Shown here: positions 37,889 to 44,570 of the stretch, piece by piece
How the letters are laid out: each line of letters starts with the position of its first letter
Numbering within the stretch: position 1 is the stretch's first letter
Assembly (NCBI GenBank): GCA_902761535.1
Contig: CACWKS010000002.1
Coordinates: 206,418-270,417, forward strand
Origin: an uncultured Pseudomonadota bacterium
GTDB taxonomy: Bacteria; Pseudomonadota; Alphaproteobacteria; RF32; CAG-239
Direction of reading: 5' to 3'
DNA length: 64,000 nucleotides
The notes under the pieces: model-generated
The model's input: the letters and a program-made list of their open reading frames with translations, nothing else
Database searches by the model: none
Told to the model about the DNA's origin: nothing
Translations under genes and position numbers: made by a program

Positions 37889-38124
37889 ACCAACTGGAAC
37901 AAGATGCTAAAATGGAAGAGATTTACTACATATTATTATCTTTGTGCCGAGAATATTCGCTCGAAATGATGAATGGTGCAATCACTCAAGAAGATTGTTA
38001 TACTAAACTGAAGATGATTAAAAACGACATGAAACAACTTGATAAACAAGAGTTGATGAATAAAACTAAACAAATATACCAGCCAATACTTAAGAAATTA
38101 AAGAAGAAACATTATGACACTTGA
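37864..38124 (+). CDS. Small helical protein, possible antitoxin partner of the zeta-like gene
   Basis: This 86-residue, charged, wholly helical protein is of no recognised family. It overlaps the phosphatase gene by 25 bases, with GAGAGGA eight bases before its ATG, and overlaps the zeta-like gene by 11 bases. Size, composition and position are what one expects for an antitoxin of a zeta-type kinase (epsilon proteins are small helical bundles), but no sequence similarity to epsilon or PezA is apparent. Treat the antitoxin role as a hypothesis. Confidence 0.6.
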   Translation: MVVDRNDINQLEQDAKMEEIYYILLSLCREYSLEMMNGAITQEDCYTKLKMIKNDMKQLDKQELMNKTKQIYQPILKKLKKKHYDT

Positions 38125-39043
38125 AGAAAAAATTGATAAATACCGCTTAAATGATGAACAAAGAGAGTTTTGGTATGAAAATGTGTTGAGACAAGTTTTC
38201 TTAAGTGATACATCTCCCAGCCAAACCCGTCCTGTGTTTACCTTATTGACAGCACAGCCCGGATCAGGCAAAACTACTGCGGCAGTTAGAAATGCCCGGC
38301 AAACTAATCCTTATCCGGTCAGATTTGGCGGTGACGACATACGCCTGACTTTACCTTATGCCGATACCGTAATGCATGAAGATGCTGATAATTATTCATT
38401 TATAACCCGTCCGGATATGTCTTGGGGCAGAGAAAAATTGGTAGATGAATGTCTGCACAACCATTACAATTTGCAAATTGACAGTATTTTGATTCATGCC
38501 GATGATTATAAAATGGGAACAATTATGCGTGCCAAAGAACATGGGTATAAAATAGAATGTGTGGTATTGGGTGTTCCTGATTTTTTAAGTATGGTTTCTA
38601 TGTATAATCGTCGAGAACAACAAATACTTAAAGAGGGAGTAGGTTTCCCCGTAGTTATAAAAGAACATGATTATGCTTATGATATATTGCCCGACGTAAC
38701 AGCTAAAATGTACGACTTGCAAATAGCTGATCGGGTTCGGGTTATCAATCGTCAATTTAAGGAATTTTACGATACGGATAAATCGCCCCATCCGAATGGT
38801 GATGAAATTAAAGAGGCAATTAACCAAGCTCGCCAAAGTTATGTGCAAAGAACCTATTTGGCATATACCAACACTTTATGGAAATCCATTTATCAAAACA
38901 TGAAAAGAAGAGGGGCTTCCAAGGAGCATTTTTCTGCCGCCGATGAGCAATATCATAAATTTGAACAAATTTGCCGTCAAAATGGATTATATAATCCGCA
39001 AACCGATACTATTTACCAATCTAAACTAAAAGAAAAATCATAA
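38114..39043 (+). CDS. Zeta-toxin-like nucleotide-sugar kinase family protein
   Basis: This 309-residue P-loop protein has Walker A AQPGSGKTT (47-55). GGDDIRLTLP with an Asp pair and the DMSWGREKLVDECL region with a conserved Glu/Arg resemble the zeta/PezT UDP-N-acetylglucosamine kinase fold. Zeta toxins phosphorylate UNAG and block wall synthesis. A C-terminal helical extension of about 90 residues (from NRQFKEF) is not part of the minimal toxin. It is third in an operon with a histidine phosphatase and a small helical protein. A housekeeping kinase role is also possible. Confidence 0.8.
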   Translation: MTLEEKIDKYRLNDEQREFWYENVLRQVFLSDTSPSQTRPVFTLLTAQPGSGKTTAAVRNARQTNPYPVRFGGDDIRLTLPYADTVMHEDADNYSFITRPDMSWGREKLVDECLHNHYNLQIDSILIHADDYKMGTIMRAKEHGYKIECVVLGVPDFLSMVSMYNRREQQILKEGVGFPVVIKEHDYAYDILPDVTAKMYDLQIADRVRVINRQFKEFYDTDKSPHPNGDEIKEAINQARQSYVQRTYLAYTNTLWKSIYQNMKRRGASKEHFSAADEQYHKFEQICRQNGLYNPQTDTIYQSKLKEKS

Positions 39044-39130: not shown

Positions 39131-39158
39131 TTTACAACATAACATATTTATGATACAA
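39131..39158 (+). promoter_or_regulatory. Candidate promoter for the giant protease-kinase gene
   Basis: TTTACA (39131-39136) and TACAAT (39153-39158) with a 16-base spacer. A potential ATG at 39150 would overlap the -10 box, which argues for the start at 39201. Confidence 0.5.
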
Positions 39159-39200: not shown

Positions 39201-42200
39201 ATGACCAGGATCCTTGAAGATGATTATTTTGAAGAATGTCGTTTATTTGATGAAAATTCTCTGGTTAATCAATTAGCAGCTGCGAAAATTGAAACTATTT
39301 TCAGAAAATTATTTCAAAACACCAAAGTTGATCCTGATGAATTTTATTTTACAATTTTTGATGATGAAGATAGTAATGCCTTTTTCATTAATAAAGAACA
39401 AACGATTGAAAAGAAGAAAAATATTATTGCCATATCTCGCGGTCTTATAAAAGCGTGCCATAATGAAGCCGAACTAGCCGGAATAATAGGTCATGAAAGC
39501 GGGCACTATCTTTGGAAAGAACTTTTAGGCGGCCAAAATAGCATTTTTCAAGAACATGCGGCTGATTTATATGCTATTGATTTGTTGCGCAACGGAGGAT
39601 ACAACCCTCGGCATCATTTAGCTGTTTGTGAAAGACTGTTTAGTGATTATGGAAGAGTAAAATATAATCATATAAGTTTAGGAGTTCATGGAAACGGACT
39701 TCTTCGTAGTGATGATATCAAAGATTACATGACCAAAATTGCCAATGAAGAAGGCGATTTTCCACCCTTGGATAACGTCGAGGATACTGACTATAAGTCA
39801 TTTCAAGAGGCGATTGCTCAAGCATTTTCCAAAGAAGGATACTATACCTACATCGAAAAATGTTTCCAAAAAGAGTTGGGAACCAAAGATTTATCGGAAA
39901 TTCCCGTTCAAGATGCCTTGCGTATAATGTTGCAAGAAATGCAAAATAATAATATAACTATCGATAAAACTGTACGTTTTCAGCAAATATTTAAAATCAT
40001 CGAAACTTATGCTCAAAAAAACGTATTTTTGAATAAAACACCGGAACTAACAAAGTTGTGTCAGGAATTCTTTTTAGAAACGACTAACCAAATAAAAAAT
40101 ATTTCAGCCCAAAACAATTTACAAACTAAACTTAATATAAATGAGTATATGAAACAATTAATATCAAATAATTATCAGATGTTATATAATTTCAAATTGA
40201 AAAAATTTGGTGATTTTGTAACCCAAAGCGAAAATATTGAACATTTTGTAAATTTCCAAAACAAAGAAGATGCTGTTCACTGGGCAGAAGAAATGTATAA
40301 ACTTAGCTGGACACTTGAATATTGTCACGCTTTTACAGATGATGAATACCCGCATTGGACAGCTAAAAAAGAACAAAATATCGGTCACCCCTTACCTTGG
40401 AATGAAATACTAAACTTTATTGTTGCAGAAAAAAACAATGTAGCATTGTCTTGGGCTTATGATAGTTTAATTTATGATATACATAATTATAATAGAAAAT
40501 ACTCAACACAATATGATGATAAAGACTATATAGGAAATTTATATTTTTCAGATAAAAATAAAATAGTTTTAGCTTATGGTGAAGAAGCTAAAAAAATGCA
40601 TAAAGATGCAGAATTAGCCAATGCAATTATAAATTATAAGGAAAAATGTATCTTAGAACGACAACAATTTCAAAGAAATATGAATTTCTACAATGCCTTA
40701 GCTCTATTTGCAATGACTAATAATAAAGAAGAAAAAATACAACATATTTCTACTATACTTAAAACGATACAAGATATTTCAATTAATTATATTGTTGATT
40801 ATACTGAAAGTCATCCTGCTTATATATGCAATCCAGAAATAGACGAAATCAAACAGATTTGGAATGATTCTCCTGCACGACAATATTTTGATAATATATA
40901 TGATGCAGATGTCATTAATTTAGCAAAAATGACTTATGAAAATAAAAACAAAGAAAAAAACATAAAAGTACTTTCTGAGTTGCCGGAAGAAGATAAACCA
41001 AAATATCTTTCAAATGTTGAAGATAATAATGCTATTGAAACGATAGCAAGATCATTCAGATTATCGACCAATATATACCAAAAACAAAAGGTTGTTATAG
41101 CACTTTTACAAGTAGCAAATTATCTTGAAAATATGGATGCAAACAATGAGTATACTGCAGAAATTTATAAAATCATAGGCGAAATAATTAGCGTTAATTG
41201 CCATATTAAAAATTATTTGTTACAAGTTCCTGAAAAAGAAGTAAAACTATATGCTACAAGATATGACCTGTTAAATAATGATCTGATTAAATACTATAAT
41301 TATAGTATTGCAAAATCTGCAAAAGCTATAAGAACAACCTGTAATTCATGGCACGATTATGAAACAATAGTACCTTCAATTGTTAGCGTTTCTCTTAAAG
41401 AACTGGTAAACCCTAGATTAAAATCAAGCCCTTTGTTAGATCAAATTATGGAAACTATGGGATTTGATGCTACTTTATCTTATAGTGAAAATCTTTCCAG
41501 GCTTGATAATTACATCGGAAAAGAAATAATACTCAGACACAGCTTTGATTTTGGCTCATCAGAAAACAAACAGTTAAATAATTCTATATATGATGAGAAA
41601 TATATAGAATATAGTATTATAAAGAATCAACCATGTTATGATTTTATAAGATTTCATAAAAAATTCGGTGTTTTAATATTAGCTAACAATATTAAACGAA
41701 ACAATTCCTGGGATTTGAAAGAAGCTATGAAATATCTGCGATTATCCGACCACGCAGACTATCACCATCCGTTTGTTCCTGATATGCTGGCTGAAAGCAT
41801 ACAGCAGGGAGATAAATTTAATCAATTATCTTTAGCCGATAAAATATATGTTTATGATGTTATGGAACATCTTGATTTATTCTCGGAAAAATATGCTAAT
41901 AAAGAAGAATTTCTTCATACCATAGTTCGAGAAATTACAAACTATCCGAATCACGATAAGGCAATGGAATATGCCGAAAAACTTTTGAGTGGTCAATATG
42001 TTCATTTAGATATAGCTCAGAACGAGCGCAGAAATATCGAATTTGCTCAAGAAGTACAATTGCTGATCAAATTCTACGCCAAAGGCAAATCTGATGAATT
42101 GGGTATTGATGACGGAAGTGATGAATTTTTTGCTAAAGCCGAAAAATGCGCAGATACAATATGCGCCGATATTCCCATGTTAGATTATTTTGGGCAATCG

Positions 42201-44312
42201 AAAAATAATATTAAAAAGTTTTCACCTTATATAACCAATCAAATTTTGAATGAAATTTCTAATAATATTGTTTCTCAAGAAATGACTGCAAAAATGCTGG
42301 CAAATAAAGGATTGGTTCAATTTTCCGGAGACGATGCGGAAAAATATGATATCTATGCACGAGGAGCTTTAGCTTTGGTTAGTGCTCTGGCTAAAACACC
42401 GCAACATGCAAAAATATTAATAGATTTCTTAAATTCTAAATTTACGGATAAATCAGTTGAGAAAGTATTCGCATCACTTCCTGCAAGATATGATTTACAA
42501 CGTGGATGCAAAATATATATTCAAGAATTTAATATTCAAAAAAATTTTGTTTATGACAAAGCAAGCTTACAAATGTTGCATAAGAATTTTTGGTCAGCTA
42601 ATCTTCCTGCAAGGGCCTATATTATGAAAAGAATATTGAACGCCTACACTGCTGACGAATCCACCGAAGAAGGAGTAAAAGCTAAAAAACTTAATTTGGT
42701 AGTTGATATGTATTTTGATAAAAAATCACCTTATTACAACGATGCCCAAAAAATCATTAATGCTTTTTATAACAACCTTCAGGATTATGAGCTAGACTTG
42801 ATTTTTGGTGCATTAGTATCCGCAAATCAAAAAGATGATAATAATAAAAAAATCGGTGGTGAACTAATAGGTGAGGGGTTAAAGATGTTCTTTGAAAACA
42901 AAGGCCCCGCATTCGTAAAATTTGGACAAATGCTCAGCTATTTACCTCAGCTTGATGCCGATATCCGAAGACCTTTAGCTAAGTTGAGAGATAAAGCCGA
43001 TATACCCACACGTGATGCTTTGTTTAAATTGCTTAATGAAACACTGCCAGATGAAGAACTGAAAAAAATTTCTCGTGTAGATAAAATTCTTGGCGCCGGT
43101 TCGTATTTTATTATTGCCCAAATCACCTATGAAAACAAAGACCATGTAGTTGCATTAATGCGGCCACATGCCAAAGAACTATCAGCTTCTGGAATGAATA
43201 CGATTAATAACACCATTGCATATTTGAGCGAACAGGATAATAAATATAAAGTTTTGCAAAATGTAGCTTATCAAGCCAAAATTTCTTCCGAAAGCGAAAC
43301 AGATATTGAAAGTGATTTTCAAAAATATTTAGAAGCAGTAAAAATTTACAACGATATAAAAATAACTACCCCAAACGGAGAATATACTCCCCGGGTTGCT
43401 AAGTGGAAAAGTTACGGATCAGGCAAAGACGGCAATGTCTATAAGATAATGGATATGGCCGAAGGTGAGGCTATGACATCAAATAAATTTAGTGAACAGG
43501 AAAAACATGATGCTGCCGTTGCATATGTAACTTTGGAATTATGTAATTTGCTTTCCGGAGCCAGATGGGATACTGACAGACACCAAGGTCAGCAAAATTT
43601 CAAAGCTGTGCAAGAACATGAAAATGGGTTTAAAAATTTCATTATCGGTATTTTTGATACTGGGGCTCAAATCCAGCATACTCCGAACAAAAAAGATAAA
43701 ATCATGTTAGGCGAAATGCTTTACGGAATGGCCAGAGCAGCAAGAACAGGTCGTAGTTTTAGTGATTATATGATTAAAAAAGTAATGAAAATTGATAAAA
43801 TCGGAAAAAAACTTAAAATTGATACTTTATATATTGATGAGGTACAAAGAGGGTTAATTACTTTATCCGATATAATCACTTATCAAAAAGAGTTAAAAGA
43901 TGAAAATGGTAATATTATTCAAGAAGAAAAAAGTTTAACCTCAAAAGAAATGGGCGAAATTGTCAATTCTATTTTATCCTCAGGACTGGTTGATAAAACT
44001 ATGATTAAAACCATAAAAGCAAAAGTTATATTAAATAAATTGCGGCCTTTACGCAAAGGATGGATAAATTCATTATCTGAAGGATTAAAGAAAATTGCTC
44101 CAACCATCAAAATAGAGAAGAAGAATCCTTCAGAAGATGATAATAATTTAATTTCACGCAAAAATAAACCGGTAGATGAGATAGAAAAACTTGCAAATCC
44201 GGATCAAAACTCATTAGGGGTTAATATAAAATATATAAAACCAAGTGTAAAACCTTCCTCACAATATACTTCTGTTGCTGTTGCTGCATTAAAAGATACC
44301 CAAAAAATATAA
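39201..44312 (+). CDS. Giant M48-like metallopeptidase / ABC1(UbiB)-like kinase fusion
   Basis: This is a 1703-residue protein starting at ATG 39201 (AAAGG upstream). Residues 98-102 are HESGH, the HExxH zinc motif, preceded by AELAGIIG; E118 in EHAAD is the expected third ligand, as in M48 peptidases. Residues about 200-1220 are helical with no recognised domain. From about 1230 comes an ABC1/ADCK-like region. GPAFVKFGQMLSYLPQL (KxGQ-type motif, K1240) is followed by LAKLRDKADIP, then a glycine/alanine loop GAGS (1298-1301) before VALMRP. DRHQGQQN (D1459, H1461, N1466) is a catalytic-loop-like motif and IFDTG (D1486) stands in the DFG position. There is no signal peptide or clear membrane helix. 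I know no described protein with this pairing; function unknown. It is AT-rich and monocistronic. Confidence 0.8.
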   Translation: MTRILEDDYFEECRLFDENSLVNQLAAAKIETIFRKLFQNTKVDPDEFYFTIFDDEDSNAFFINKEQTIEKKKNIIAISRGLIKACHNEAELAGIIGHESGHYLWKELLGGQNSIFQEHAADLYAIDLLRNGGYNPRHHLAVCERLFSDYGRVKYNHISLGVHGNGLLRSDDIKDYMTKIANEEGDFPPLDNVEDTDYKSFQEAIAQAFSKEGYYTYIEKCFQKELGTKDLSEIPVQDALRIMLQEMQNNNITIDKTVRFQQIFKIIETYAQKNVFLNKTPELTKLCQEFFLETTNQIKNISAQNNLQTKLNINEYMKQLISNNYQMLYNFKLKKFGDFVTQSENIEHFVNFQNKEDAVHWAEEMYKLSWTLEYCHAFTDDEYPHWTAKKEQNIGHPLPWNEILNFIVAEKNNVALSWAYDSLIYDIHNYNRKYSTQYDDKDYIGNLYFSDKNKIVLAYGEEAKKMHKDAELANAIINYKEKCILERQQFQRNMNFYNALALFAMTNNKEEKIQHISTILKTIQDISINYIVDYTESHPAYICNPEIDEIKQIWNDSPARQYFDNIYDADVINLAKMTYENKNKEKNIKVLSELPEEDKPKYLSNVEDNNAIETIARSFRLSTNIYQKQKVVIALLQVANYLENMDANNEYTAEIYKIIGEIISVNCHIKNYLLQVPEKEVKLYATRYDLLNNDLIKYYNYSIAKSAKAIRTTCNSWHDYETIVPSIVSVSLKELVNPRLKSSPLLDQIMETMGFDATLSYSENLSRLDNYIGKEIILRHSFDFGSSENKQLNNSIYDEKYIEYSIIKNQPCYDFIRFHKKFGVLILANNIKRNNSWDLKEAMKYLRLSDHADYHHPFVPDMLAESIQQGDKFNQLSLADKIYVYDVMEHLDLFSEKYANKEEFLHTIVREITNYPNHDKAMEYAEKLLSGQYVHLDIAQNERRNIEFAQEVQLLIKFYAKGKSDELGIDDGSDEFFAKAEKCADTICADIPMLDYFGQSKNNIKKFSPYITNQILNEISNNIVSQEMTAKMLANKGLVQFSGDDAEKYDIYARGALALVSALAKTPQHAKILIDFLNSKFTDKSVEKVFASLPARYDLQRGCKIYIQEFNIQKNFVYDKASLQMLHKNFWSANLPARAYIMKRILNAYTADESTEEGVKAKKLNLVVDMYFDKKSPYYNDAQKIINAFYNNLQDYELDLIFGALVSANQKDDNNKKIGGELIGEGLKMFFENKGPAFVKFGQMLSYLPQLDADIRRPLAKLRDKADIPTRDALFKLLNETLPDEELKKISRVDKILGAGSYFIIAQITYENKDHVVALMRPHAKELSASGMNTINNTIAYLSEQDNKYKVLQNVAYQAKISSESETDIESDFQKYLEAVKIYNDIKITTPNGEYTPRVAKWKSYGSGKDGNVYKIMDMAEGEAMTSNKFSEQEKHDAAVAYVTLELCNLLSGARWDTDRHQGQQNFKAVQEHENGFKNFIIGIFDTGAQIQHTPNKKDKIMLGEMLYGMARAARTGRSFSDYMIKKVMKIDKIGKKLKIDTLYIDEVQRGLITLSDIITYQKELKDENGNIIQEEKSLTSKEMGEIVNSILSSGLVDKTMIKTIKAKVILNKLRPLRKGWINSLSEGLKKIAPTIKIEKKNPSEDDNNLISRKNKPVDEIEKLANPDQNSLGVNIKYIKPSVKPSSQYTSVAVAALKDTQKI

Positions 44313-44377: not shown

Positions 44378-44570
44378 ATATTAAGATTATAAGCAAAAAT
44401 AACGAAAATGTAAATAAGAAAAAAATTAGGACAATCAGCTTTTGAAAAAAATATTGCTGAAAGACAATTTTAACAGAAAAAATAGGGGAAAAATCCCTTA
44501 AAAAAATCCTCTCAATAAATTGTCGCATAATGTATATTATGTATACTTAAATAAGAGTAAAACAATAAAC

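What the first reader, a model, noticed from the sequence alone, without database searches (positions are those of the whole stretch)
39201..44312. Single 1703-residue protein combining an M48-like zinc peptidase motif with an ABC1/UbiB-like kinase region
Seen: HESGH at 98-102 with a downstream EHAAD (M48 pattern). At the other end are FVKFGQMLS (1238-1246), LAKLRDKADIP, a GAGS loop before VALMRP, DRHQGQQN and IFDTG. Their order matches KxGQ, A-rich loop, catalytic loop and DFG of ADCK/UbiB kinases. Known: ABC1 kinases support ubiquinone synthesis and M48 enzymes act in envelope quality control; I know no described fusion of the two. Between them lie about 1000 helical residues with no family. 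Inference: a new large protease-kinase regulator or effector. No neighbour shares the unit.
Basis: partly seen in the sequence, partly recalled or inferred. Interest (0 to 1): 0.78.

Follow-up and report, generated by a model that had tools for sequence, protein, structure and literature searches.

The report
Mobile giant protease–UbiB-like fusion protein
A gut alphaproteobacterium carries one very large, recently acquired protein that joins a zinc-protease domain to a partly dismantled UbiB-type kinase domain, and it belongs to a scattered, fast-changing family that I found described nowhere and that looks like a weapon or defence factor rather than a housekeeping enzyme.

Summary
The 1703-residue ORF at 39201-44312 has an M48 zinc-peptidase domain at its N-terminus and a domain homologous to ABC1/UbiB atypical kinases at its C-terminus. 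I found 20 members (1198-2489 aa) in small-genome Alphaproteobacteria. Wherever the whole gene is on one contig, both ends lie in one ORF, so the fusion is a conserved architecture. The M48 catalytic residues are intact in 15 of 19 readable members, the window's included. The kinase-like end keeps KxGQ, ExD, DRHxGQ and DTG, but the window protein lacks the canonical beta3 lysine (A1318) and alphaC glutamate, and the metal-binding Asn is Gln in the 17 members with a readable motif. "Kinase" is therefore a fold assignment, not a demonstrated activity. The gene is horizontally acquired: 1 of 35 congeners has it, its GC is 31% against 37% for the window, and it sits between a gene and the dif site that lie together in relatives. 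In another family both copies lie beside tRNAs and integrases, one with AbiE genes, and show dN/dS near 1 without stops. Best reading: a single-gene mobile conflict protein in which a UbiB-like switch controls an M48 protease. The function is inferred; two AlphaFold attempts failed.

The parts
39201..44312 (+). 1703-aa M48/UbiB-like fusion protein (whole gene with stop)
   Evidence: ORF; full-length relatives start at the same residue; single copy in the genome
39201..39737 (+). M48 zinc-peptidase domain, residues 1-179
   Evidence: Pfam PF01435 E=6e-13 on this segment; profile match to PDB 3c37 and BepA
39492..39506 (+). HESGH 98-102 (HExxH zinc motif)
39552..39566 (+). EHAAD 118-122 (third zinc ligand, ExxAD)
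   Evidence: D122 nearly invariant in the family
39687..39707 (+). HGNGLLR 163-169 (counterpart of the M48 HPxxxxR motif)
   Evidence: alignments
39738..42761 (+). Middle region, residues 180-1187, no known family; least conserved part (22-34% identity to nearest relatives at 401-800)
42762..43940 (+). ABC1/UbiB-like domain, residues 1188-1580; most conserved part (66-84% per 100 residues)
42918..42929 (+). KFGQ 1240-1243 (UbiB KxGQ motif)
   Evidence: Lys in 19 of 20 and Gln in 19 of 20 members
43092..43103 (+). GAGS 1298-1301 (position of the UbiB Ala-rich loop; GSAS in several relatives)
43152..43154 (+). Ala1318 in place of the beta3 lysine (VALMRP against VIKVIRP of UbiB)
   Evidence: Lys kept in 6 of 20 members
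43296..43304 (+). ETD 1366-1368 (UbiB ExD motif)
   Evidence: E1366 invariant in 15 sequences
43575..43592 (+). DRHQGQ 1459-1464 (catalytic loop; DxHPGN in UbiB, Asn to Gln)
43656..43664 (+). DTG 1486-1488 (DFG counterpart)
   Evidence: D and G invariant
44520..44547 (+). Chromosomal dif site (XerC/XerD), 208 bp downstream of the gene
   Evidence: conserved in 8 congeners in the same interval; GC skew changes sign here
38114..39043 (+). Flanking zeta-toxin-like ATPase gene, conserved in congeners, not part of the unit

Best explanation
A large, apparently cytosolic, stand-alone protein spread by horizontal transfer and used in biological conflict, most simply defence against phage or other mobile DNA. 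An M48 zinc peptidase at the N-terminus is the effector. The roughly 1000-residue, fast-changing middle recognises the trigger or target. The C-terminal UbiB-type domain binds a nucleotide in an altered pocket and acts as the switch that holds or releases the protease, which then cleaves a cytosolic protein, as the phage-exclusion protease Lit does. Shown: both domain homologies, their joint conservation, retained zinc motif, altered kinase pocket, horizontal acquisition and, in G369, a mobile context. Inferred: cytosolic location (no hydrophobic segment), nucleotide binding, switching, substrate cleavage and the defence role.
For: Both ends in one ORF in every unbroken locus. M48 residues intact in 15 of 19. 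UbiB-specific KxGQ, ExD, DRHxGQ, DxG conserved, with dN/dS 0.07 across that domain in G068 against G138. Sporadic: 14 of 153 genomes in the order, 1 of 35 in the genus, 3 of 24 in another family. Low GC, no hydrophobic segment. Congeners have the flanking gene and dif with no giant between. In G369 one copy is tRNA-Gln / integrase / giant and the other giant / integrase / tRNA-Pro with two AbiEii and one AbiEi gene. The G369 copies differ at 926 of 4767 nt with 37 in-frame indel blocks and no stop (about 21 stops per copy expected under drift), dN/dS 1.09 overall, 1.45 in the N-terminal part, 0.8 in the kinase-like part. Type I restriction and Fic-like genes within 10 kb in G077. Published precedent: an M48 peptidase gene in a phage-defence island of E. 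coli (PMC12255303).
Against: No direct evidence of phage protection, proteolysis or nucleotide binding. No PADLOC defence model hits the window protein. Most loci, the window's included, are not in clear defence islands. The similarity to Lit (4 of 17 members, best 2e-6) is confined to the HExxH neighbourhood in the member examined. Four members have lost the zinc motif, so proteolysis is not needed in every lineage. dN/dS in the G369 pair is not significantly above 1.
Confidence: 0.4

Rival explanations
1. A secreted effector delivered into host or protist cells by gut-associated bacteria, with protease and kinase-like domains acting on host proteins.
For: Carriers are small-genome, probably host-associated Alphaproteobacteria; a VirB4 ATPase is present in 110 of 134 genomes of the order; giant size, sporadic distribution and fast-evolving parts fit effectors.
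Against: VirB4 is not found in three carriers, G000 (96% complete), G135 and G179; no hydrophobic segment or signal peptide; VirB4 is so common that its presence does not track the gene. Other export routes were not tested.
Confidence: 0.25
2. A true protein kinase joined to a protease, a signalling enzyme, using a non-canonical pocket.
For: KxGQ, ExD, catalytic Asp and DTG conserved; the beta3 Lys is kept in 6 of 20 members; SelO (general knowledge) shows that degenerate kinase folds can have other transferase activity.
Against: In the window protein the beta3 Lys is Ala, the alphaC Glu is Asp, the metal Asn is Gln; even ADCK3 is not a settled protein kinase (PMC4718504).
Confidence: 0.12
3. 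Maintenance or anti-host cargo of mobile elements (addiction, anti-restriction or competition between elements) rather than host defence.
For: Two G369 copies next to integrases and tRNAs; one beside an IS66-like transposase fragment in G903 (my reading of the ORF).
Against: No matching gene in 50,697 phage or 72,556 plasmid records, nor in viral contigs within the limits of that search.
Confidence: 0.13
4. A cytoplasmic housekeeping or lipid/quinone-related factor: a UbiB-like ATPase with an attached quality-control peptidase.
For: UbiB proteins act in ubiquinone synthesis and M48 enzymes in protein quality control; the window genome has no canonical ABC1 gene, so this could be its only UbiB-type protein.
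Against: Only 14 of 153 genomes of the order carry it while the order almost lacks canonical ABC1 genes, so it does not replace UbiB; gain and loss pattern, low GC, integrase contexts.
Confidence: 0.08

Closest known systems
Peptidase family M48 (BepA, LoiP, HtpX; PDB 3c37, 6ait)
   Same: HExxH, ExxAD and an HPxxxxR counterpart in order; profile E=8e-22 to 3c37 and about 1e-13 to BepA
   Different: No signal peptide or membrane segment; only the first 180 of 1703 residues; no TPR or lipoprotein parts
ABC1/UbiB/ADCK atypical kinases (E. coli UbiB, human ADCK3/COQ8A)
   Same: Whole-domain homology with KxGQ, A-rich-loop position, ExD, DxH loop, DxG in order
   Different: beta3 Lys to Ala and alphaC Glu to Asp in the window, metal Asn to Gln in the family; separate clade from UbiB (100/100); found in an order that almost lacks canonical UbiB
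Lit phage-exclusion protease (e14 prophage)
   Same: Single-gene HExxH protease as a model of phage exclusion (general knowledge); weak NCBIfam hits in 4 of 17 members around HExxH
   Different: No similarity found outside the zinc-motif neighbourhood; Lit is far smaller and has no UbiB-like domain
M48 gene of the RRDM defence island of E. coli E2348/69 (PMC12255303)
   Same: M48 peptidase gene within a proven anti-phage island
   Different: Separate gene of its own; no kinase-like part described

Membership tests
Peptidase family M48 | Pfam M48 profile above gathering score | tested here: met
   PF01435 42.1 bits against 20.3; 15 of 17 members match at E<=0.1
Peptidase family M48 | HExxH and downstream ExxAD zinc ligands | tested here: met
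   H98-E-S-G-H102, E118-x-x-x-D122; aligned with M48 structures
Peptidase family M48 | M48 fold | tested here: inconclusive
   AlphaFold with two sequences gave pLDDT 39
Peptidase family M48 | Zinc-dependent proteolysis | not testable with these tools
   needs biochemistry
ABC1/UbiB atypical kinase family | Significant family profile match | tested here: met
   Homology, but below the equivalog cutoff: TIGR01982 E=1e-6, 3e-11 in relatives; PF03109 above cutoff in G134 and G077 but no hit at E<=1 in the window protein
ABC1/UbiB atypical kinase family | KxGQ and ExD motifs | tested here: met
   K1240-x-G-Q1243, E1366-x-D1368
ABC1/UbiB atypical kinase family | beta3 Lys and alphaC Glu salt bridge (K358/E411 in ADCK3, PMC4718504) | tested here: not met
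   A1318 and D1372 at the aligned positions
ABC1/UbiB atypical kinase family | Catalytic loop DxHxGN and DFG-type DxG | tested here: not met
   D, H, G and DTG kept; the Asn is Gln1464
ABC1/UbiB atypical kinase family | Protein-kinase-like fold | tested here: inconclusive
   AlphaFold with two sequences gave pLDDT 41
Known anti-phage defence system | Match to a PADLOC model | tested here: not met
   none for the window protein; weak hits to capP and Lit in some other members
Type IV secretion effector | Secretion ATPase VirB4 in the carrier genome | tested here: not met
   not found in carriers G000, G135, G179

The most novel reading that the evidence does not exclude
A new class of single-gene immune or conflict system of Alphaproteobacteria in which a UbiB-fold domain, freed from quinone synthesis, senses a nucleotide or lipid and controls a built-in M48 protease, with a diversifying middle region choosing trigger or target.
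Probability: 0.3. Interest if true: 0.85.

Novelty: new variant of a known kind. Interest (0 to 1): 0.6.

Why it matters
ABC1/UbiB proteins are known as quinone-pathway ATPases or unorthodox kinases whose chemistry is unsettled, and M48 enzymes as envelope proteases. A conserved, mobile fusion of the two in bacteria that almost lack canonical UbiB would show the UbiB fold at work in another setting, and offers one protein in which nucleotide binding and proteolysis can be tested together.

Tried and rejected
Fold searches were therefore not run. Viral contigs, phages and plasmids: no relatives. PHROGs: none. A Xer-exploiting element flanked by two dif sites: the second site at 39131 is within chance. 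att-type repeats round the gene: none convincing. T4SS effector by VirB4: not supported. Family-profile hits to solved eukaryotic kinases: only E=0.3 and worse, not used. Membership in Lit or CapP: weak similarity, for Lit limited to the HExxH neighbourhood. Assembly artefact: rejected, since independent genomes carry the same fusion. No paper describing an M48-ABC1 fusion was found in the held library, which is not proof that none exists.

Full report
What is there. The ORF at 39201-44312 on the + strand encodes 1703 residues in one unbroken frame and is single-copy in its 1.44-Mb genome. Relatives align from the methionine at 39201, which supports that start over the in-frame ATG at 39150.

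N-terminus. Pfam M48 matches residues 27-104 at E=1e-10, above its cutoff. A profile of six relatives finds PDB 3c37 and BepA, and a 17-member profile raises this to E=8e-22 and about 1e-13. The window protein has HExxH (98-102), ExxAD (118-122) and HGNGLLR (163-169), the counterpart of the M48 HPxxxxR motif. Fifteen of the 19 members whose N-terminus can be read keep HExxH; G039, G069, G053 and G903 have lost it. The window genome has two other M48 genes.

C-terminus. NCBIfam UbiB matches residues 1220-1359 at E=1e-6 and reaches 3e-11 over most of the domain in relatives. Pfam ABC1 is above cutoff in G134 and G077. hhalign of the family against E. coli UbiB aligns the whole domain at E=1e-7. 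In the reverse direction a family profile finds UbiB-type proteins of about 500 residues in other Alphaproteobacteria at E of 3e-7 to 3e-8. The joint alignment puts KFGQ under KFGQ, GAGS/GSAS under the Ala-rich loop, VALMRP under VIKVIRP, ETD under ExD, DRHQGQ under DMHPGN and DTG under DCG/DFG.

What the kinase-like site lacks. The beta3 lysine is Ala1318; Lys is kept in only 6 of 20 members. The alphaC glutamate position is Asp1372. The metal Asn is Gln in the 17 members with a readable motif. KxGQ Lys (19 of 20), ExD Glu (all 15 aligned) and DxG Asp (20 of 20) are conserved, and dN/dS in this domain is 0.07 between G068 and G138. So the site is under strong selection, but what it does cannot be called protein phosphorylation.

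Family and distribution. The C-terminal profile finds members in 14 of 153 genomes of the order, in two further families sampled in the class and in 3 of 24 genomes of one of them; a phylum-wide sample of 398 gave only the window genome at E<=1e-12. Every locus not cut by a contig end carries both domains in one ORF. G134 is split over two contigs at contig ends, G138 lacks its 5' part, and G151 has a decayed copy. The 18 domains in the tree form one clade apart from UbiB (support 100/100), and the window groups with copies from other genera. Genera g3 and g4 each occur in three subclades, which indicates transfer and loss.

Acquisition in the window. Only 1 of 35 congeners has the gene. In congeners the zeta-like gene (or the gene before it), the chromosomal dif site and the TIM-barrel gene lie together without the giant. 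In the window the giant lies between the zeta gene and dif, which is at 44520-44547 where the GC skew changes sign. Its GC is 31.3% against 36.9% for the window.

Mobile context elsewhere. G369 has two copies. One is tRNA-Gln / integrase / giant. The other is giant / integrase / tRNA-Pro with two AbiEii and one AbiEi gene upstream. These copies differ at 926 of 4767 aligned nucleotides and by 37 indel blocks yet hold no stop, where random substitution would give about 21 per copy. dN/dS is 1.09 overall (bootstrap 0.92-1.27), 1.45 (0.93-2.56) in the first 200 residues and 0.80 in the UbiB-like part. This fits diversifying selection on part of the protein but does not prove it. Other loci are less telling: G077 has type I restriction and Fic-like genes within 10 kb; G077, G135b, G134 and G136 share a TrmJ-like neighbour, and G039, G069 and G053 a pyruvate phosphate dikinase neighbour (product names are my reading of the ORFs).

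Mechanism. I favour a single-gene conflict protein with the M48 domain as effector, the UbiB-like domain as nucleotide-dependent switch and the fast-changing middle (22-34% identity at residues 401-800 among nearest relatives, against 66-84% in the UbiB-like part) as recognition part. A secreted effector is the main rival, weakened by the absence of VirB4 from three carriers, though other export routes are not excluded. A quinone-related role is weakened because the order almost entirely lacks canonical UbiB while few genomes carry the giant.

Limits. Both AlphaFold jobs failed for want of sequences, so no structural test was made. The helical nature of the middle is unproven. Many of the genomes are in many pieces and incomplete, so absences carry some error. 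Organism names are not given for most genomes; one relative is a roe deer colon Alphaproteobacteria assembly.

Noticed in passing
window 44520-44547: A clear chromosomal dif site at the GC-skew switch. In the window it lies on the opposite strand, relative to the flanking genes, from all 8 congeners examined, and only one dif is present.
   Followed up: partly
window 38114-39043: Zeta-toxin-like gene (Pfam Zeta_toxin E=3e-26) conserved next to dif in congeners without the giant.
   Followed up: partly
L079:10716-14594, L080:10538-14341: About 1300-residue ORFs with a related M48 N-terminus but no UbiB-like end found, in G149 and G151.
   Followed up: partly
L081:350-1468, L082:6359-7318: Short (320-376 aa) stand-alone M48-like ORFs in several genomes of the order.
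   Followed up: partly
L078:9314-10147: A decayed copy of the giant (277-residue piece of the UbiB-like end) in G151.
   Followed up: no
order-wide search: Canonical ABC1/UbiB genes are almost absent from this alphaproteobacterial order.
   Followed up: partly
order-wide search: VirB4 is present in 110 of 134 genomes of the order but missing in the window genome and about nine congeners.
   Followed up: no
L086:1231-2124: A short, divergent ABC1-type ORF (297 aa, PF03109 E=2e-15) in G077, far shorter than a full UbiB.
   Followed up: no
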